DNA from: Flavobacteriales bacterium
GTDB taxonomy: Bacteria; Bacteroidota; Bacteroidia; NS11-12g; UBA955
Assembly (NCBI GenBank): GCA_947463125.1
Contig: CANHQZ010000018.1
Span: 1-36,959 of the forward strand
DNA length: 36,959 nt
Reading direction: 5' to 3'
The notes under the pieces were generated by a model. It worked only from the letters and a program-made list of their open reading frames with translations, was not told where the DNA came from and ran no database searches. The position numbers were made by a program, and so were the translations under genes. How positions within the stretch are numbered: position 1 is the first letter of the stretch; each line of letters starts with the position of its first letter. Of the stretch, positions 3,380 to 35,078 are shown piece by piece.

Positions 3380-5649
3380 TTGATATCGAAACTTAAACGT
3401 AGAAATGCCGTTCTGCCGGGTGCAATATTGACATTCAGACCCTGTTCAGAGTGGGGTGTCAGGTTGCGGCGTGTAGAGGCAAGTGTGGTAACTCCGAGTA
3501 TGTTTTTAATGCCGCAGGAAATATGCAGATTTGCTTTGGGAAAAGCTTTTTGGGCGGTGATGTCTATCAGATAAAAACCTGCAGTTCTGTAGCGATCGTT
3601 GTTTTCCATGTATCCCATGGTGGGGCTGGTGTATCTGCTCAGCAGGGATACGGAGGCATTCTGCCGTTTAATTTTTCGCGTGAGATTGAAAGCGAGCTGT
3701 CCGTTCAGGTATGAGCGCTGATTTACAGTATCGGCCTGTTCCAGTAAGTCGTATACATTGAGCAGGGTGCCGGACATTTGAAACGAGAATTTTTCATTGT
3801 GAAATTCAAAGTTGGTACTCAGGCCCTGGGAACGGAATCTTCCTATATTGATGTAGGTGTAGTAGTTGGTATTCAAATCAATCAGGGCGAGGTTGATTTT
3901 GTTTCTGATGATGTTGTTAAACAAAGAGAAGCTGAATATGGCTCCTGAAGTGCTTGAAAACGGGTGTCGGTAATCAAAAGACAGAATAAAATTATCTGAT
4001 ATTTCCGCTTTCAGGCTGTCATTACCATGAACATTGTGGCTCATGTCCACAAAATAGAAGTTCAGTTCTTTCAGTGATGGCGCCCTGAAACCTTTGGCGT
4101 AGCTGCCGCGGAAACACAGGTGTTTGGATAAATTATATTTCAACTGTAAAGAAGGAATAACAGGAGCCATTTTCAGCCTGTTGCCAAACACAGAGGTAAT
4201 GACGGGGCTGCCGAACCGAGAATTATGCAAAACCCGAACGGAGGGTCTGATCTGCCACTCTTTGCTGGGGGAGTATTCCAAAGAGCCAAAAACAGCAAGA
4301 TCTGTAATACCGGGAAGCTCCGCAGGTATTCTCTTTCCGGTTCCGGTTTCTCTCATAAAATCATAGCCAGCGGTCCAGGATGCCTTGTTTACCGGATTTC
4401 TGTGCGTATACACCCCACGCGAATTAATCATAGTAAAAATGGTTGTATCCTGGTCTTCAGGCCTGTAGGGCGTTTCCGCGCCGGTTACCAGGTTCCTTTT
4501 GATCGTGTTTTTGGCTCTGTTAAAGTAATTGAACGCATTTTGCCATTCAAACCGGCTAAAAGCGTTTATCTTGAACACTGAATGTATGGTATTGTCAATC
4601 CTTGTGGTCTGGTAAATGGAATTGTAACCGGTAACATTGGCCAGGCTGAATTCAGCGTCGCTGCGGTCTGTAAGCTTCTCCTGGAAAATAGATGAACTGA
4701 TGCGGTGGTTGCTATTTTTTGTGTTCAAAAAAAATGCTGCATCCGCAAACTGCTTGGTTTTTGGTTTCCAGTCAAAGCTTCTGGTTGATGGATTGAAATC
4801 CCTGCCGGCAAAGAAATGACGTCCCGCATTTAATGTAATTGGCATGTTTTTGTGCAATCTGCCTGAAACATTAACATCGTAGTTGAAGTTGCTGAAGGAA
4901 GACATATAATCGTGAAACACATTAATTCGGGTGTTGAATCGCTGGTTAGAGGGGTTTTTGGTGATAATGTTAATGACTCCGCCGAGAGCATCGGTTCCGT
5001 ATACCACACTCATGGGCCCTTCAATAATTTCAACACGCTCCACGTTGCTGAGAACAATCTGACCCAGATCTACATTGCCATTTACCCTGCCTATTACCGG
5101 AATACCATTGATGAGAATTTTTATATCCTGTCCGCCAATTCCTTGCATAATAGCATTGCTACCCATAACGGCATCCTGGCCTACCTGAATGTTGGCTTCG
5201 TTCAACAGCAGTTCGCCCAGATTTTGTGCTCCCAGTTGTATGAACTTTTCTTTTTGTATAACACGAACCAGATAGGGGTTATCTGCAATTTGCCTGGGAC
5301 CTGTGGCTCCGGTTATGGTTACCGGGTTGATGAGCATGTTTTTTTGCTTCAGGGAAACAACGATATGCAGGTCCATTGCGGAATAGGTGCCTGAAAAATC
5401 TATCATTGAGTCGGAAGGTGAAATGATGCTCAGTTTGAACGCACCTGTACTGTTTACTGTGAAAATTCCCTGTGCATCGGTTTTGCCCGTGAGCAGTGAG
5501 GTCTGAGGCCGAAAATCCGCCAGCACATCAGCCCCGGCCACCGGTTTTCCTTTCTCATCCGTAACCCGGACGGTTCGCTCCTGGGCAAACACACCCACAC
5601 AACCCGCTACCAGGCTTATAAAAGAGGCTATGTAGGGTTTAATGCGCAA
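3376..5649 (-). CDS. TonB-dependent outer-membrane receptor, HmuR-like
   Basis: 757 aa, a 22-stranded barrel receptor by family. Signal peptide 1-22; CarboxypepD_reg-like Ig domain about 25-100; plug about 105-235, with NVERVEIIEGPMSVVYGTDA near 202-221 and GGVINIITKNP; barrel to the terminal LRLSFDIK. FRAP at 521-524, His538/His541 and the GNDSL box at 542-546 resemble the FRAP...His...NPNL arrangement of heme receptors, which together with the adjacent HmuY-like genes favours heme as substrate; cobalamin or another metal chelate is not excluded. No ATG is available near the signal peptide: translation appears to start at TTG 5647-5649, two codons after the in-frame TAA of the preceding gene. 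Its TGA overlaps the next ATG by 4 bp. Confidence 0.88.
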   Translation of the reverse strand: MRIKPYIASFISLVAGCVGVFAQERTVRVTDEKGKPVAGADVLADFRPQTSLLTGKTDAQGIFTVNSTGAFKLSIISPSDSMIDFSGTYSAMDLHIVVSLKQKNMLINPVTITGATGPRQIADNPYLVRVIQKEKFIQLGAQNLGELLLNEANIQVGQDAVMGSNAIMQGIGGQDIKILINGIPVIGRVNGNVDLGQIVLSNVERVEIIEGPMSVVYGTDALGGVINIITKNPSNQRFNTRINVFHDYMSSFSNFNYDVNVSGRLHKNMPITLNAGRHFFAGRDFNPSTRSFDWKPKTKQFADAAFFLNTKNSNHRISSSIFQEKLTDRSDAEFSLANVTGYNSIYQTTRIDNTIHSVFKINAFSRFEWQNAFNYFNRAKNTIKRNLVTGAETPYRPEDQDTTIFTMINSRGVYTHRNPVNKASWTAGYDFMRETGTGKRIPAELPGITDLAVFGSLEYSPSKEWQIRPSVRVLHNSRFGSPVITSVFGNRLKMAPVIPSLQLKYNLSKHLCFRGSYAKGFRAPSLKELNFYFVDMSHNVHGNDSLKAEISDNFILSFDYRHPFSSTSGAIFSFSLFNNIIRNKINLALIDLNTNYYTYINIGRFRSQGLSTNFEFHNEKFSFQMSGTLLNVYDLLEQADTVNQRSYLNGQLAFNLTRKIKRQNASVSLLSRYTSPTMGYMENNDRYRTAGFYLIDITAQKAFPKANLHISCGIKNILGVTTLASTRRNLTPHSEQGLNVNIAPGRTAFLRLSFDIK

Positions 5650-27874: not shown

Positions 27875-28851
27875 TATCGTATTATTTCTATAATATGGCT
27901 GCTTGTACTGTAGTTATTACTAAAAACAAGGCAATACATACCGGTAGGTTGGTCAATTTTAAGGGTGTTTTCGCCTTTTTGTATATTCCAGGATACAATT
28001 TTGCTGCCTGAAATATCATACAATGTGGCCAATGATTGTCCTTCTGTGTATACATTCATAAAGTTGCCGTATAATGGATTGGGCCCTAATTTTATGGACA
28101 AGTCCAACCGGGAATTGTTTTTCTTAATAGACGCTTTGGCATGAATTACACCCACCGCATCCAGGTCAAATCCACCCGATGAAAACCGGGTTGGCCATGG
28201 ATCATTTATTTTATTTTCTTTCGAATCCCTGGATGCAAATGTTGGCTGCATGCTTCCCGTTACATCTTTGATTCGGACATGGGTTATGGACGAAATATTA
28301 ATTCCCAGCGAATCTTTCAATTCCTCCAGATCGAAGGGCGTGCCGAATCCCACGCGGTATTTGCCCGCAAGATTGTTTATTCTCTCAGGAAACGTATATC
28401 CAAAAGCGCCGGTCTGCATTGTAGTATCGGTGAGGCTTATGGCCGGAAACCGAACGAATTTTTTGCCATCGCTGCTTACTTCCACAAAAGCCAGTTCAAG
28501 GAAAGTGTCCAGAAAGCTGTTTTCAAAAACGGCAAAATCCCAGCCGGGGCCATTGGTAACCGGTGATTCAAATGTGAGTGTGGCAGTGCCGCCGTCGCCC
28601 AGGCTCACAATGCCGTTTTGCAGGGCCGCACCTACAGCGGACTGCGCTGAACCGGCATCGGCATAGCCACTGTCGGGCTGGGAGATATCGCGGAACCCCC
28701 TTACTATTTCACAACTTTTTGCCCAGGCGATGAAGCACGCACTGTCATGCTTTATCGCAGTACTTCCCGGTTTGCCCGCGGCAGCTGCGAATTGGGCGTT
28801 CGTATTGATTATAAAAAACAATGATGGAAGAAAGGCAGCAAGATTTTTCAC
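27874..28851 (-). CDS. T9SS type A-sorted surface protein
   Basis: 325 aa from GTG 28849-28851. Signal peptide 1-19 (ends NAQ). The middle domain (about 25-235) reads GKPGSTAIKHDSACFIAWA, SLGDGGTATLTFESPVTNG, FAVFENSFLDTFLELAFVEV, SSDGKKFVRFP and FDLDAVGVIHA, a conserved Bacteroidetes secreted domain without a function I can name. From memory, relatives sit beside TonB/cobalamin-type uptake genes, but no such gene adjoins this one. The tail (about 250-325) has LGPNPLYGNF, LYDISGSKIVSW and GMYCLVFSN, a T9SS type A sorting domain. GTGA overlap with the NTase gene upstream and a one-base overlap downstream indicate one operon. Confidence 0.78.
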   Translation of the reverse strand: MKNLAAFLPSLFFIINTNAQFAAAAGKPGSTAIKHDSACFIAWAKSCEIVRGFRDISQPDSGYADAGSAQSAVGAALQNGIVSLGDGGTATLTFESPVTNGPGWDFAVFENSFLDTFLELAFVEVSSDGKKFVRFPAISLTDTTMQTGAFGYTFPERINNLAGKYRVGFGTPFDLEELKDSLGINISSITHVRIKDVTGSMQPTFASRDSKENKINDPWPTRFSSGGFDLDAVGVIHAKASIKKNNSRLDLSIKLGPNPLYGNFMNVYTEGQSLATLYDISGSKIVSWNIQKGENTLKIDQPTGMYCLVFSNNYSTSSHIIEIIR

Positions 28852-29312
28852 GTGTCAGCGTTATTTTGAAGCCCCTCGATATCGGCAATGTCCTGTGCTC
28901 TTCCTGTCACTATTTTAGATTCTATCAAATGATTTTTATGTATGAAAGGTATGCTTAATTTGTCTATATCCACCATTGTTTTAACAGCCCATGCATTGTT
29001 CCATTCAACACCAGCTATATAAGTTAAAAAGTCAATCCTCGCCGGTTCTTCGCCCACATGAAATGCGAGGTGCGATTCGAAATCCAAAGATTCAAGATGT
29101 TGAATATCTGTGTACTCTATATCCATCCTGTTAAATACCTTTATTAATTTAGATTTATTAAAGTTATCAGGTTTGAGCCACAAATCTACATCGCCTGTAC
29201 TTCGACGATAGCCATAAAAGTTCACTGCAAATCCGCCAACGATAAGAAATTCAACATTTTCTTCCAGCAGCAAATTCAGAACTTCAATATGTTCATCCTG
29301 AAAAATATTCAT
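28848..29312 (-). CDS. Nucleotidyltransferase-fold protein (DUF6036/AbiEii-like)
   Basis: 154 aa from ATG 29310-29312. NTase core: FLIVGGFAVNFYGYRRSTGD with GG at 26-27 and the metal-binding Asp41-Val-Asp43, and a third carboxylate Asp94 in ARIDFLTYI, so the active-site triad looks intact. The rest is helical. Such minimal NTases include toxin-antitoxin (MNT, AbiEii) and DUF6036 proteins that transfer nucleotides to tRNA, protein or small molecules; the acceptor is unknown. It overlaps the small upstream ORF by 20 bp and the downstream T9SS gene by 4 bp. Local DNA is more AT-rich than the flanks, suggesting acquisition. Confidence 0.78.
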   Translation of the reverse strand: MNIFQDEHIEVLNLLLEENVEFLIVGGFAVNFYGYRRSTGDVDLWLKPDNFNKSKLIKVFNRMDIEYTDIQHLESLDFESHLAFHVGEEPARIDFLTYIAGVEWNNAWAVKTMVDIDKLSIPFIHKNHLIESKIVTGRAQDIADIEGLQNNADT

Positions 29313-31257: not shown

Positions 31258-31905
31258 GGATAAATCGCCGCTTACATTGTTTTCTGCAAGCAATCTTCCC
31301 GACAGTAAAATCTCCCTGATACTGAAATATGCCGGCATCTGCAGACTTCGGTATTTTCGCCATGTTTGGGGGCGGGCAATGTTCAGTGCGTCGGCGGCAT
31401 ACTTGTAATCGTTGCCTTCCAGAAATATGCCCAGTATTTCTTTATCTTTTTTCAGGTTCCATCCTCCCATCAGGTGATCCCAGACATAGAGGCCCTGCAA
31501 AAGAAAAAAATCGTCCTCGCGGTCATGGGTGCGAACAAAAAATCGGTTTTTAGTGCCTTCCCGCTGCAGGGTCTGTCTCAGTAGCGGCAATTCTCTGCCA
31601 CCCACAATAGGATTGCGTTTCTCATCTTTCATCAGGGTAAACGCCCCGCTACAGATACTCCAGTGCATGATGGGGCCAACACCGGACTGCATCAGTTCCT
31701 CTTCCAGAAAAACCATCGCATTAATAGCATCTGTTGCATGTTGAAACAGCCCATTGACCTCATTCCCGTAAGCCAGCCGAAAGGGCAGAAGCGTACGTTT
31801 TTTTATTCTTTTATTTACGGATACAATGCTGTCAAGCAGTGCTTCACCCGTTTTAACGGTTGTTTTTTCCGGTTTTCGGATTCTTCCAAGAACAATGTAA
31901 TTCAT
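31237..31905 (-). CDS. SatD-like family protein
   Basis: 222 aa from ATG 31903-31905; a TTG at 31914 is possible. The N-terminal half resembles the SatD family: NYIVLGRIRKPEKTT (compare the GDIxxSR opening), a helix with LLDSIVSVNKRIK, then FRLAYGNEVNGLFQHATDAI, where the SatD proteins have a GDEFQGL block. The C-terminal part ends in a helix-turn-helix-like region (YAADALNIARPQTWRKYRSL) that resembles the WSK-type end of the family. SatD was described with SatC in streptococcal acid resistance; molecular function is unknown. No SatE-like membrane gene adjoins it. The match is to motif spacing, so it is moderate. Confidence 0.5.
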   Translation of the reverse strand: MNYIVLGRIRKPEKTTVKTGEALLDSIVSVNKRIKKRTLLPFRLAYGNEVNGLFQHATDAINAMVFLEEELMQSGVGPIMHWSICSGAFTLMKDEKRNPIVGGRELPLLRQTLQREGTKNRFFVRTHDREDDFFLLQGLYVWDHLMGGWNLKKDKEILGIFLEGNDYKYAADALNIARPQTWRKYRSLQMPAYFSIREILLSGRLLAENNVSGDLSLQINKP

Positions 31906-32041: not shown

Positions 32042-32049
32042 TAATTTTG
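32042..32049 (+). promoter_or_regulatory. -7 box (TAATTTTG) for glmM
   Basis: TAATTTTG fits TAnnTTTG, 12 nt before ATG 32062. It includes the TTG at 32047, which therefore is not the start codon. Confidence 0.5.
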
Positions 32050-32061
32050 CACCCCTCGTTT

Positions 32062-33438
32062 ATGACGCTGATTAAGTCTATTTCCGGTATTCGCGGCACC
32101 ATTGGTGGTATTCCCGATCAAAACCTTACTCCCATTGACATTGTAAAATTTGCCTCAGCCTTTGGCACCTGGATTTTGGGCAAAGACTGCGGAAACAAAG
32201 TGGTTATCGGAAGAGATGCCCGGTTGAGCGGCCCAATGGTACATGGTCTTATCAGCAACACGCTTGTCGGTCTTGGAATAGATGTAATTGATCTCGGCAT
32301 GGCAACAACCCCAACTGTAGAGGTAGCGGTTACGGAACTGCAGGCAGCCGGAGGAATTATCATTACGGCCAGCCACAATCCAAAACAGTGGAATGCTTTG
32401 AAATTGCTCAATTTCCGAGGTGAGTTTATCAGCGATGAGGACGGCAAAGAAGTGCTGACTCTGGCAGAAAACAATGATTTTTCTTTTGCCACTGTTGATG
32501 ATCTTGGCAAAACAGAACAGCTGGATTTTTTAGACAGGCACATAGAAATGATCCTGGCGCTGAGTCTTGTGGATGTGGAAGCGATTGCGTCGAAAAAATA
32601 TAAAATAGCCGTAGATGCCGTAAACAGTGTGGGTGGAATAGCCGTTCCACGCCTGCTGAAGGCTTTGGGCGTTGAAGAAATTCTTGAACTGAATTGTGAG
32701 CCAAGCGGCCGTTTTGCACACAACCCGGAACCATTGCCTGAGCATCTCGGAGAGATATCGTCTTTGGTAAAAAGCAAGAAATGTCATTTGGGTATTGTGG
32801 TAGATCCTGATGTGGACAGGCTAGCCTTGGTTTGTGAAGATGGAGAGATGTTTGGCGAAGAATACACCCTTGTAGCGGTTGCCGACTATATTTTGAAAAA
32901 CACTCCGGGATCAACGGTGAGTAATCTTAGCAGTACCCGAGCGTTGAAGGAGATTACAGAAAAAGCTGGACAGGCATACAATGCCAGTGCTGTTGGTGAA
33001 GTGAACGTGGTGCAAAAAATGAAAGAAACCGGCGCTGTGATAGGCGGTGAGGGAAACGGAGGGATTATTTATCCTGAACTGCACTACGGTCGTGATGCCT
33101 TGGTTGGAATAGCATTGTTCCTTACGCATCTGGCAAAAAGCGGTATGCGGACCGGAGCCCTGCGTGCATCCTATCCTTCTTACGTAATCAGTAAAAATAA
33201 GGCTGAATTGCAACCCGGAATGGATGTGGACGCTGTACTGGAAGCACTGAAACAGAAATACAAAAAACATCCTATCAATTCCATTGATGGTGTGAAAATT
33301 GAATTTGACGGTGACTGGGTGCATCTGCGCAAATCCAATACAGAACCTATTATTCGCATATATGCCGAAAGCAATACGCAGAATACCGCTGATGCGCTCG
33401 CCAGGAAAGTGATTCAGGATATTGGAGATCTGATTTAG
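32062..33438 (+). CDS. glmM: Phosphoglucosamine mutase (alpha-D-phosphohexomutase family)
   Basis: 458 aa from ATG 32062. Converts glucosamine 6-phosphate to glucosamine 1-phosphate for UDP-GlcNAc, the precursor of peptidoglycan and LPS. Blocks: SISGIRGTIGG at the start, GRDARLSGPMVHG, the phosphoserine loop IITASHNPKQWNALK with Ser104, the metal-binding loop VVDPDVDRLAL, the sugar-specificity loop GGEGNGGIIYP, and the phosphate-binding end VHLRKSNTEPIIRIYAES. The GEGNGG form is seen in archaeal/Bacteroidetes GlmM-like enzymes and leaves open a phosphomannomutase/phosphoglucomutase activity. The gene is followed at once by the inverted-repeat cassette. Confidence 0.88.
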   Translation: MTLIKSISGIRGTIGGIPDQNLTPIDIVKFASAFGTWILGKDCGNKVVIGRDARLSGPMVHGLISNTLVGLGIDVIDLGMATTPTVEVAVTELQAAGGIIITASHNPKQWNALKLLNFRGEFISDEDGKEVLTLAENNDFSFATVDDLGKTEQLDFLDRHIEMILALSLVDVEAIASKKYKIAVDAVNSVGGIAVPRLLKALGVEEILELNCEPSGRFAHNPEPLPEHLGEISSLVKSKKCHLGIVVDPDVDRLALVCEDGEMFGEEYTLVAVADYILKNTPGSTVSNLSSTRALKEITEKAGQAYNASAVGEVNVVQKMKETGAVIGGEGNGGIIYPELHYGRDALVGIALFLTHLAKSGMRTGALRASYPSYVISKNKAELQPGMDVDAVLEALKQKYKKHPINSIDGVKIEFDGDWVHLRKSNTEPIIRIYAESNTQNTADALARKVIQDIGDLI

Positions 33439-33443
33439 TTTAC

Positions 33444-33467
33444 AGTTAACAGTTGATAGTCAACAGT
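33444..33467 (+). repeat. Left arm of inverted repeat flanking the four-helix-bundle gene
   Basis: 24 bp beginning AGTTAACAGTTGATAGTC, 5 bp after the glmM stop. It pairs with 33944-33967 at 22 of 24 positions (mismatches at arm positions 14 and 19). It also contains most of a near-tandem repeat: AGTTAACAGTTGA (33444-33456) against AGTCAACAGTTGA (33458-33470), 12 of 13 identical. Confidence 0.85.
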
Positions 33468-33519
33468 TGAACTCTAGGATGATAAGTTGAAAATCGAACA
33501 AGAACTTAATTTAAAAAAA

Positions 33520-33915
33520 ATGAGCAATCGTGATAACAGTATCATCTTGAAAAAGGCGTTTGATTTTGCGGTTAAAATTGTCAAGTTTAATAATAAACTA
33601 ACATCTGAAAAGCATTTTATTCTGGGCAGGCAACTTTTACGGAGTGGTACATCCATTGGAGCCAATGTGAATGAGGTACTTGCGGCATATAGTCGAAAAG
33701 ACTTTATACACAAAATGATGATAGCTCTTAAAGAAGCGCAGGAAACTGAATACTGGCTTAAATTGATCAATGCCTCTGATTTACTAAAAGAGTTCGATCT
33801 TCTCTATTATTTAAATGATGTAGTTGAATTACAGAAAATACTTACTTCAATAATTAATACTTCAAAAAAACAATTAATAAAGGAAAATGATGTATCAAAA
33901 GCGAATCTTAAATAA
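33520..33915 (+). CDS. Four helix bundle protein (23S rRNA intervening-sequence / S23 type, PF05635)
   Basis: 131 aa from ATG 33520, preceded by a run of eight A. Family blocks: NSIILKKAFDFAVKIVKF (helix 1), EKHFILGRQLLRSGTSIGAN (helix 2; the LLRSGTSIGAN motif is diagnostic), VNEVLAAYSRKDFIHKMMIA, KEAQETEYWLKLINAS (helix 3), and an AT-rich fourth helix. Relatives are encoded by IVS elements in 23S rRNA genes and, as Avd, in diversity-generating retroelements. They form pentameric barrels and bind nucleic acid in the Avd case. Function outside those settings is unknown. An in-frame TTG at 33487 is the alternative start. Confidence 0.88.
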   Translation: MSNRDNSIILKKAFDFAVKIVKFNNKLTSEKHFILGRQLLRSGTSIGANVNEVLAAYSRKDFIHKMMIALKEAQETEYWLKLINASDLLKEFDLLYYLNDVVELQKILTSIINTSKKQLIKENDVSKANLK

Positions 33916-33932
33916 TATAATTAATTTAGTAT

Positions 33933-33967
33933 CAGTCTACCAGACTGTAGACTGTCAACTGTTAACT
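33933..33967 (+). repeat. Right arm of inverted repeat plus nested hairpin
   Basis: The right arm is 33944-33967 (reverse complement of the left arm, 22 of 24). Nested in and next to it, AGTCTAC (33934-33940) and GTAGACT (33947-33953) form a perfect 7-bp inverted repeat with a 6-bp loop. The arm ends 13 bp before the ychF ATG. In RNA the two arms could pair across the gene or the local hairpin could form instead. Confidence 0.8.
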
Positions 33968-33980
33968 TTCAACTAAAAAA

Positions 33981-35078
33981 ATGAGTTTACAATGCGGAAT
34001 CGTCGGACTGCCCAATGTGGGTAAATCCACCTTATTCAACGCGGTGAGCAGTGCCAAAGCACAGGCTGCCAATTTCCCTTTTTGTACCATAGAACCCAAC
34101 GTTGGGACTATTACCGTTCCGGATGAGCGGCTTTCGGTGCTGACCGAGCTGGTAAATCCACAGAATGTGGTTCCTACCACTATTGAAATTGTAGATATAG
34201 CCGGTCTGGTAAAAGGCGCAAGCCAGGGCGAGGGTCTGGGTAATCAGTTTTTGGGGAACATCCGCAATACCCACGCTATTTTGCATGTCCTGCGTTGCTT
34301 TGATGATCCCAATGTGATACACGTGGATGGTAAGGTGGATCCCGTGGCCGATAAGGAAATCATCGACACAGAATTGCAGCTAAAGGATTTGGAATCCATT
34401 GATAAGAGCATAGCCAAAATCCACAAACAGGCAAAGGCAGGTGATAAAGAAGCTGTCCGATTGCTGGAAGTGCTCGAGGCTTTCAAGACACATCTGGAAC
34501 AGGGCAAAAATTGCCGCACCCTGAATACCGATGCAGAACGCCGCGCTTTGCTGAAAGATATGCACCTGCTTACAGACAAACCCGTACTATATGTATGCAA
34601 TGTAGATCCGGAGAGTGTGGTAAAAGGAAATGCCCACGTGGAAAAGGTAAAACAAGCCATCGCAGATGAAAATGCCGGAATACTGATTATTTCGGCTGCT
34701 ATTGAAGCTGAAATTGCGGAGCTGGAAAGTTTTGATGACCGCAAGTTGTTTCTTGAAGAAATGGGATTAACCGAAAGCGGTGTTGAGAAACTGATTAAGG
34801 CTGCCTACAAATTGCTGAATTACATAACCTATTTCACCGTAGGCGTTAAAGAAGTGCGTGCGTGGACCATCACCGAAGGTACCAAAGCCCCACAGGCTGC
34901 CGGAGAAATTCATTCAGATTTTGAAAAGGGATTTATCCGTGCTGAGGTAATCGCTTACCAGGATTATGTAACCCTAAAAACAGAAGCAGCTTGCAGAGCC
35001 GCAGGAAAACTAAGGGTTGAAGGCAAAGAGTATATTGTGAAGGATGGTGACTGTATGCACTTCCTTTTCAATGTGTAA
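33981..35078 (+). CDS. ychF: Redox-regulated ATPase YchF (Obg/OLA1 family)
   Basis: 365 aa. P-loop GLPNVGKST (9-17), switch region AANFPFCTIEPNVGTI, DIAGLVKGASQGEGLGN (Walker B/G3), and NVDPE in place of the NKxD specificity motif, the change that makes YchF/OLA1 prefer ATP to GTP. A coiled-coil insert spans about 130-200 and the C-terminal TGS domain runs from about 275 (YFTVGVKEVRAWTITEGT) to the end. It binds ribosomes and responds to oxidative stress in other bacteria. It has no clear promoter: the 13-bp gap after the cassette leaves only a TAATTTAG near-match at 33922-33929. Its 3' end overlaps the HTTM-like gene by 11 bp. Confidence 0.95.
   Translation: MSLQCGIVGLPNVGKSTLFNAVSSAKAQAANFPFCTIEPNVGTITVPDERLSVLTELVNPQNVVPTTIEIVDIAGLVKGASQGEGLGNQFLGNIRNTHAILHVLRCFDDPNVIHVDGKVDPVADKEIIDTELQLKDLESIDKSIAKIHKQAKAGDKEAVRLLEVLEAFKTHLEQGKNCRTLNTDAERRALLKDMHLLTDKPVLYVCNVDPESVVKGNAHVEKVKQAIADENAGILIISAAIEAEIAELESFDDRKLFLEEMGLTESGVEKLIKAAYKLLNYITYFTVGVKEVRAWTITEGTKAPQAAGEIHSDFEKGFIRAEVIAYQDYVTLKTEAACRAAGKLRVEGKEYIVKDGDCMHFLFNV

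What the first reader, a model, noticed from the sequence alone, without database searches (positions are those of the whole stretch)
33444..33967. A four-helix-bundle gene boxed by 24-bp inverted repeats, inserted between glmM and ychF
Seen: arms 33444-33467 and 33944-33967 pair at 22 of 24 bases around a single PF05635 gene, with strongly AT-rich content and short remnants on each side (5 bp after glmM stop, 13 bp before ychF start). Known: PF05635 genes sit in intervening sequences of 23S rRNA that fold as long stems and are excised by RNase III. Inference: this is a free-standing, IVS-like mobile cassette that has landed in a protein-gene spacer, where the transcript could fold into a stem carrying the ORF in its loop. 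Its movement mechanism would be undescribed since it has no transposase.
Basis: partly seen in the sequence, partly recalled or inferred. Interest (0 to 1): 0.72.

Follow-up and report, generated by a model that had tools for sequence, protein, structure and literature searches.

The report
Transposase-less gene cassette with heptad-repeat ends
A small ring-forming protein's gene sits between two mirror-image arms, each made of five copies of a 7-letter DNA repeat, and hundreds of unrelated bacteria carry the same kind of cassette squeezed between the genes of their operons, which points to a very common and apparently undescribed mobile element with no known enzyme to move it.

Summary
The inverted arms at 33434-33467/33944-33977 (34 nt, 88%) are the cores of two 35-nt arrays of exactly five heptads (33436-33470 and, inverted, 33941-33975). 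They enclose a PF05635 four-helix-bundle (4HB) gene; the 540-bp unit fills the glmM-ychF spacer. Eleven genomes of other genera in the family have an empty site (9-167 bp). A second own-genome copy (pntA-pntB) is empty in four congeners. It is one of a class: about 73% of 165 PF05635 genes have such arms, against about 1 of 376 neighbouring control genes, and 58 of 80 fresh loci repeat this. Repeat units differ between elements but match within each one, in register. Arms follow the protein lineage across sites, genomes and phyla. Cassettes lie in sense inside operons (76 vs 10), with the left arm at the upstream stop codon. Arm mismatches show no G-U bias, so pairing looks DNA-level rather than an RNase III RNA stem. 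No transposase, reverse transcriptase or target-site duplication was found. Best reading: a transposase-less mobile cassette whose pentameric 4HB protein reads its own five-heptad ends. Binding and the moving enzyme are inferred.

The parts
33436..33975 (+). whole cassette (540 bp), filling the glmM-ychF spacer from the first base of the glmM stop codon to 5 bp before the ychF start
   Evidence: empty sites in 11 genomes of other genera
33436..33470 (+). left arm: five heptads TAGTTTA CAGTTAA CAGTTGA TAGTCAA CAGTTGA; overlaps the glmM stop codon TAG (33436-33438)
   Evidence: inverted-repeat core 33434-33467
33520..33915 (+). 4HB gene (131 aa from ATG; longest frame starts TTG 33487), PF05635/TIGR02436, close to 2RLD (BT_0352, five chains)
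   Evidence: AlphaFold2 pLDDT 95.8, four helices
33941..33975 (-). right arm: five heptads read inward on the minus strand, TAGTTGA AAGTTAA CAGTTGA CAGTCTA CAGTCTG; in register with the left arm
   Evidence: inverted-repeat core 33944-33977
32047..33438 (+). upstream neighbour glmM-like phosphosugar mutase gene (host gene; its stop codon lies in the left arm)
33981..35078 (+). downstream neighbour ychF GTPase gene (host gene), starting 5 bp after the right array

Best explanation
This is one copy of a very common class of minimal mobile DNA cassette. A single PF05635 four-helix-bundle gene lies between terminal inverted arms of about 36 nt, each normally built of five heptads (core A-[A/G]-T plus four variable positions). 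The gene product is a homopentameric ring in solved relatives. I propose that one ring binds one arm, one protomer per heptad, that two rings hold the two ends together, and that this marks the cassette for copying or moving by a host or other trans-acting enzyme not yet identified. The cassette lands in short spacers of operons in the sense direction, so that it needs no promoter and its arm supplies or overlaps the upstream stop codon. SHOWN: cassette anatomy, the fixed arm length with a five-unit mode, arm register, co-travel of arms and gene, presence/absence polymorphism, sense bias, purifying selection on the protein. INFERRED: binding of the arms by the ring, bridging of ends, action at DNA level, a helper in trans.
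For: Generality: 120 of 165 distinct PF05635 genes have flanking arms scoring >=30, against 9 of 384 neighbouring ORFs, 8 of which are duplicate 4HB loci. Fresh set: 58 of 80. Heptads: period 7 in 95 of 120; exactly five units in 78 of 162 non-redundant period-7 arms, 6 in only 10. The window has 5 + 5, and the solo arm in the same genome has 5 in the same unit order, 31/35 identical. Register: 87% in-register against 73% shifted by whole units, higher in 76 of 78 loci. Arms travel with the gene: arm similarity rises with protein identity at non-orthologous sites. Each element's arms resemble those of its nearest protein homologue in another genome more than those of its own genome's paralogues (0.36 vs 0.23, P 7e-5). 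Label-level cross-phylum pairs: Anaerolineales/Lentisphaerae 80%, Desulfuromonadales/Bacteroidota 76%. Two copies 91% identical in nucleotides at different sites of one Ignavibacteria genome. Gain and loss: pntA-pntB filled in 2, empty in 4 congeners, with the filled ones not sister to each other; glmM-ychF empty in 11 other-genus genomes. A gene-less pair of arms with the pntA-pntB arm type. Sense placement 76 vs 10. dN/dS about 0.03-0.09 in pairs with measurable dS. Fold: 2RLD Z 18.7, 2GSC Z 15.3, DGR Avd Z about 13; the 2GSC protein is a pentameric toroid (PMC4990558).
Against: No protein-arm binding was tested. Period-8 arms have the same length (median 37 nt) as period-7 arms (36 nt), so 'five units' and 'fixed about 36 nt' are not separated. 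No target-site duplication and no identified moving enzyme: no reverse transcriptase in G000 and five of its six congeners, and Y1 transposase absent from two cassette-bearing congeners. Some cassettes are inherited vertically for long times (mvaD-mevalonate kinase site in 21 Flavobacteriaceae genomes), which could mean domestication. About a quarter of PF05635 genes show no detectable arms. Cross-phylum pairs rest on MAG labels. Filled/empty pairs are different species, so the exact junctions are not fixed.
Confidence: 0.58

Rival explanations
1. IVS-like RNA element: the transcript folds so that the two arms form a long stem, RNase III cuts it, and the cassette is excised from the operon mRNA, which makes it nearly neutral wherever it lands, as in 23S rRNA.
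For: Same protein family as 23S rRNA intervening sequences. The Coxiella IVS has a 28-bp terminal stem cut by RNase III (PMC4990558). The window RNA folds with the arms paired, z -3.7. Strong sense orientation inside operons.
Against: A helix selected as RNA should tolerate G-U more than A-C; counts are 107 vs 103 and 24 vs 25 in the orthologous series. No own-genome copy in rRNA. No Rfam match. Sense bias is also expected if the gene only needs read-through transcription.
Confidence: 0.2
2. TRAP-like post-transcriptional regulator: the pentamer wraps the five heptads of the 5' arm in mRNA and controls its own or the neighbouring gene's translation; the elements are largely domesticated.
For: Five repeats for a five-subunit ring; left arm lies at the stop codon of one gene and upstream of the 4HB start; dN/dS about 0.03-0.09; vertical retention in Flavobacteriaceae. 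TAACTGA heptad arrays upstream of start codons were proposed as regulator sites (PMC4679880).
Against: Does not need a right arm, yet the right arm is present and in register. Gain/loss within a genus and transfer of arms plus gene fit a mobile element better. The same cassette type sits in many unrelated operons.
Confidence: 0.15
3. The arms are only ordinary simple-sequence repeats of these genomes, and the pairing around the gene is incidental.
For: Heptad arrays also occur alone (G000:C38; L243; L338) and in long tracts in some genomes.
Against: In 437 kb of the own genome only two such inverted pairs pass the threshold, the window's and one gene-less element. Control genes have none beyond about 1 of 376. 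Arms match in register and follow the protein, not the genome.
Confidence: 0.03

Closest known systems
Intervening sequences (IVS) of 23S rRNA with an S23p ORF (Leptospira, Coxiella)
   Same: PF05635-type gene in the loop of a terminal inverted repeat; sense orientation; size about 430-540 bp; no transposase; AT-rich
   Different: sits between protein genes of operons, not in rRNA helix 9/25/45; arms are heptad arrays; no sign of selection as RNA; many different copies per genome
TAACTGA heptad direct repeats (MacGregor 2015, PMC4679880)
   Same: same 7-nt unit type in intergenic DNA, including Bacteroidetes and Cyanobacteria; 2-6 copies typical in one genome
   Different: described as direct repeats upstream of start codons, without the inverted partner and without a link to the 4HB gene
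Terminal-inverted-repeat elements and MITEs
   Same: short element with matched inverted ends, copies with and without the gene, scattered sites
   Different: no transposase, no target-site duplication detected, ends are repeat arrays that differ between elements
Avd of diversity-generating retroelements (4DWL; DGR ribonucleoprotein 8UB7)
   Same: same four-helix-bundle fold (Z about 13)
   Different: Avd works beside a reverse transcriptase and template RNA; no reverse transcriptase is present in the window's genome
S23 family proteins BT_0352 (2RLD) and XCC0516 (2GSC)
   Same: closest solved structures, five chains each in the entries; XCC0516 reported as a pentameric toroid
   Different: no function or nucleic-acid partner known; arms around these two genes were not examined here

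Membership tests
23S rRNA intervening sequence (IVS) | encodes a PF05635/S23p four-helix-bundle protein | tested here: met
   E 1.1e-25 over 103 residues; 2RLD fold Z 18.7
23S rRNA intervening sequence (IVS) | located within a 23S rRNA gene | tested here: not met
   between glmM and ychF; the only other own-genome PF05635 gene is between pntA- and pntB-type genes
23S rRNA intervening sequence (IVS) | terminal inverted repeats able to form a long stem | tested here: met
   34 nt, 88%; predicted stem
23S rRNA intervening sequence (IVS) | excised from RNA by RNase III | not testable with these tools
   indirect sign is negative: no G-U excess in arm mismatches
Autonomous IS / transposon | encodes a transposase or recombinase | tested here: not met
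   only gene is PF05635
Autonomous IS / transposon | terminal inverted repeats | tested here: met
Autonomous IS / transposon | target-site duplication | tested here: inconclusive
   shared words at the outer edges equal the shuffled expectation, but edges are uncertain by some bases and some elements make none
Diversity-generating retroelement (Avd) | adjacent reverse transcriptase | tested here: not met
   no PF00078 match in G000
Diversity-generating retroelement (Avd) | template and variable repeats | not tested
   not searched for; no reverse transcriptase present

The most novel reading that the evidence does not exclude
A categorically new, widespread mobile element in which a pentameric ring protein without any known nuclease or polymerase domain recognises exactly five heptads at each of two inverted ends, one protomer per heptad, and thereby directs movement of its own gene. 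Each lineage evolves its own heptad 'address', and the 23S rRNA intervening sequences are the few members that landed in rRNA.
Probability: 0.3. Interest if true: 0.93.

Novelty: new variant of a known kind. Interest (0 to 1): 0.77.

Why it matters
'Four helix bundle protein' genes occur in 235 of 296 sampled Bacteroidota genomes, often with many copies, and have no known function outside rRNA intervening sequences and retroelements. If their genes are cassettes with readable ends, this class may be among the most common small mobile elements in that phylum. It gives the protein family a concrete, testable ligand (its own five-heptad arm). It also offers an explanation for heptad repeats that have been noted without one, and poses a clear question of what moves an element that has no transposase.

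Tried and rejected
RNA-level selection on the arms: G-U vs A-C mismatches 105/105, 107/103 and 24/25, no signal. Target-site duplication: no excess over shuffles. Reverse transcriptase as helper: absent from G000 and five of six congeners. Y1 transposase as helper: absent from G003 and G004, which carry the cassette; of 13 fetched regions around these genes and the G001 reverse transcriptase, only one held a clear array of the arm type (L338) and it is not next to the transposase. Other cargo: in 437 kb of the own genome no other gene lies in such arms; around other 4HB genes a few extra inverted arrays lie next to the cassette, and I did not resolve what they hold. Defence association: no PADLOC match. 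Rfam: no match. Test whether 'five units' holds for other unit lengths: period-8 arms have the same nucleotide length, so not decided. A first, wider alignment was too diverse for the collection scan. Paper searches for PF05635 with repeats or mobility gave no description of these arms, but only open-licence papers are held.

Full report
WHAT IS IN THE WINDOW. The reported repeat is real: 33444-33467 and 33944-33967 pair at 22 of 24 positions. The tool extends it to 34 nt, 88% complementary, 33434-33467/33944-33977, including the glmM stop codon. The score of the two flanks (48) exceeds all of 100 dinucleotide-preserving shuffles (maximum 26). Each arm is an array of exactly five heptads: left 33436-33470 TAGTTTA CAGTTAA CAGTTGA TAGTCAA CAGTTGA; right, read inward, 33975-33941 TAGTTGA AAGTTAA CAGTTGA CAGTCTA CAGTCTG. 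The unit is 540 bp, runs from the first base of the glmM stop to 5 bp before ychF, and is 30.6% GC in a 46.0% GC window. Its gene is PF05635/TIGR02436. The AlphaFold2 model is a confident four-helix bundle (pLDDT 95.8) closest to 2RLD, then 2GSC, then the Avd proteins of diversity-generating retroelements.

EMPTY SITES AND OTHER COPIES. In the genus, all six genomes in which the site could be read have a 4HB gene between glmM and ychF, each with its own arm sequence; the G004 copy has an in-frame stop. Eleven genomes of other genera in the family have glmM and ychF 9-167 bp apart with no such gene. The second own-genome copy lies between pntA and pntB-type genes. It is present in G000 and G001 (spacers of 547 and 616 bp) and absent in G002, G004, G005 and G006 (28-53 bp). 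On the pntA tree G000 groups with empty G004, while filled G001 is distant, so the site has been gained or lost more than once. At glmM-ychF the 4HB tree joins G003 and G006, unlike the ychF tree, which hints at replacement at the same spot, with modest support. The genome also has a gene-less pair of arms with the pntA-pntB arm type (L241) and a solo five-heptad array 31/35 identical to the window's left arm with the units in the same order (G000:C38).

A CLASS, NOT A CASE. Of 165 distinct PF05635 genes tested, 120 have flanking arms with score 30 or more. Among 384 neighbouring ORFs 9 do, and 8 of those are duplicate 4HB loci, so the control rate is about 1 in 376. A fresh set of 80 loci, drawn from the strongest PF05635 hits in 296 Bacteroidota genomes, gave 58 significant. 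Hosts with arms include Bacteroidota, Clostridia, Cyanobacteria, Anaerolineales, Cloacimonadota, Lentisphaerae and Desulfuromonadales by record title. PF05635 itself is found in 235 of 296 Bacteroidota genomes.

ANATOMY OF THE ARMS. Period 7 dominates (95 of 120). The heptad core is A-[A/G]-T with variable other positions, C-poor on the inward strand. In the non-redundant set of period-7 loci, arms with exactly five units are the clear mode (78 of 162 arms; 40 have four, 10 have six), with a median length of 36 nt. Period-8 arms have a median of 37 nt, so the fixed quantity could be length rather than unit number. The two arms agree in register at 87%, against 73% when shifted by whole units, and in-register is higher in 76 of 78 loci. 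They are therefore true inverted partners, not merely two arrays of the same unit. Solved relatives are five-chain entries and the Xanthomonas protein is described as a pentameric toroid (PMC4990558). One protomer per heptad is my inference from these two facts.

ARMS TRAVEL WITH THE GENE. Between non-orthologous sites, arm similarity rises with protein identity. In genomes with several copies, an element's arms resemble those of its nearest protein relative in another genome more than those of its own genome's paralogues (0.36 vs 0.23, Wilcoxon P 7e-5). Pairs such as L133/L168 (Anaerolineales/Lentisphaerae, 80% protein identity) and L153/L159 (Desulfuromonadales/Bacteroidota, 76%) share the unit type. 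Two copies in one Ignavibacteria genome, 91% identical in nucleotides, lie at different sites. Labels of metagenome-assembled genomes can be wrong, so the cross-phylum cases are suggestive.

PLACEMENT. In the non-redundant set both neighbours run in the sense of the 4HB gene in 76 loci and antisense to it in 10 (26 and 4 in the fresh set). In the first set the left arm starts at a median of 3 nt before the end of the upstream stop codon, and the right arm ends a median of 10 nt before the next start. In Flavobacterium columnare the published coordinates put such a gene between guanylate kinase and nadD genes with about 35 nt on either side (strain 94-081; PMC5524665).

HOW IT PROBABLY WORKS. 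The protein is under purifying selection (dN/dS about 0.03-0.09 where dS could be estimated), so it does something. If the arms were selected as an RNA stem, G-U mismatches should outnumber A-C; they do not (107 vs 103; 24 vs 25 in a 20-sequence orthologous series with compensatory changes). I therefore favour action on DNA ends: a ring on each five-heptad arm and a helper enzyme in trans. Neither binding nor movement has been shown. No reverse transcriptase exists in the genome, Y1 transposases are not consistently present, and no target-site duplication is seen. Sense placement fits an element that relies on read-through transcription.

COMPARISON WITH WHAT IS KNOWN. The closest known thing is the 23S rRNA intervening sequence, which shares the gene family and terminal stem but is defined by its place in rRNA, a criterion tested and not met here. 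It works like a terminal-inverted-repeat element but fails the transposase criterion. The heptad repeats recall the TAACTGA repeats described in Beggiatoaceae, Cyanobacteria and five Bacteroidetes (PMC4679880), where searches of the text for four-helix-bundle or S23 terms found nothing. I found no description of 4HB genes boxed by heptad arms in the held literature, which does not exclude one elsewhere.

LIMITS. Exact junctions are unknown because filled and empty sites come from different species. About a quarter of PF05635 genes show no detectable arms. Some sites are kept for long times (mvaD-mevalonate kinase spacer in 21 Flavobacteriaceae genomes), so part of the class may be domesticated.

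Noticed in passing
L241:8447-8885 (G000:C4 about 28447-28885): Pair of GTTTATT-type arms with about 350 bp of AT-rich DNA and no recognisable 4HB gene between them: a gene-less relative of the pntA-pntB cassette.
   Followed up: partly
L004:1501-1535 (G000:C38:10348-10383): Solo array of exactly five heptads, 31/35 identical to the window's left arm, next to a tRNA gene and between two identical 40-bp direct repeats.
   Followed up: partly
L121:5232-5633 and L125:2206-2425 (Ignavibacteria bacterium CoA_1_bin.73): Heptad arrays with a shared 80-bp tail occur with and without a 4HB gene in one genome, as if the arrays were dispersed repeats of their own.
   Followed up: no
L145, L156, L162, L169, L182, L184 and others, about 3930-4390: A 4HB cassette is kept between mvaD and a mevalonate-kinase-type gene across 21 Flavobacteriaceae genomes; its left arm encodes the end of MvaD.
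   Followed up: partly
G001:C154:1419-3041 (in L337): A reverse transcriptase next to a weak PF05635 match: probably a diversity-generating retroelement with its Avd protein, in a congener.
   Followed up: no
L338:270-341 and L338:749-1267 (G000:C77): Solo 8-mer array upstream of a repetitive small-protein gene, and nearby a Y1 (REP-associated type) transposase with hairpin-like repeats.
   Followed up: no
L243:11562-11624 (G000:C5 about 31562-31624): Solo array of about six AGTGTAG-type heptads in an intergenic region without a 4HB gene.
   Followed up: no
alignment A3, residues 38, 52, 58, 61, 62, 65, 72, 75, 78 of the protein: Q38 and E75 are invariant and E52, S58, D61, F62, K65, E72, Y78 nearly so over 44 diverse members: an unusually polar conserved set for a plain helix bundle, possibly a functional site.
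   Followed up: no
L172:4348-4950 and L146:3691-4522: Several heptad palindromes in tandem beside a 4HB gene (Bacteroidales bacterium; Oscillatoria sp.), unlike the simple two-arm cassette.
   Followed up: no
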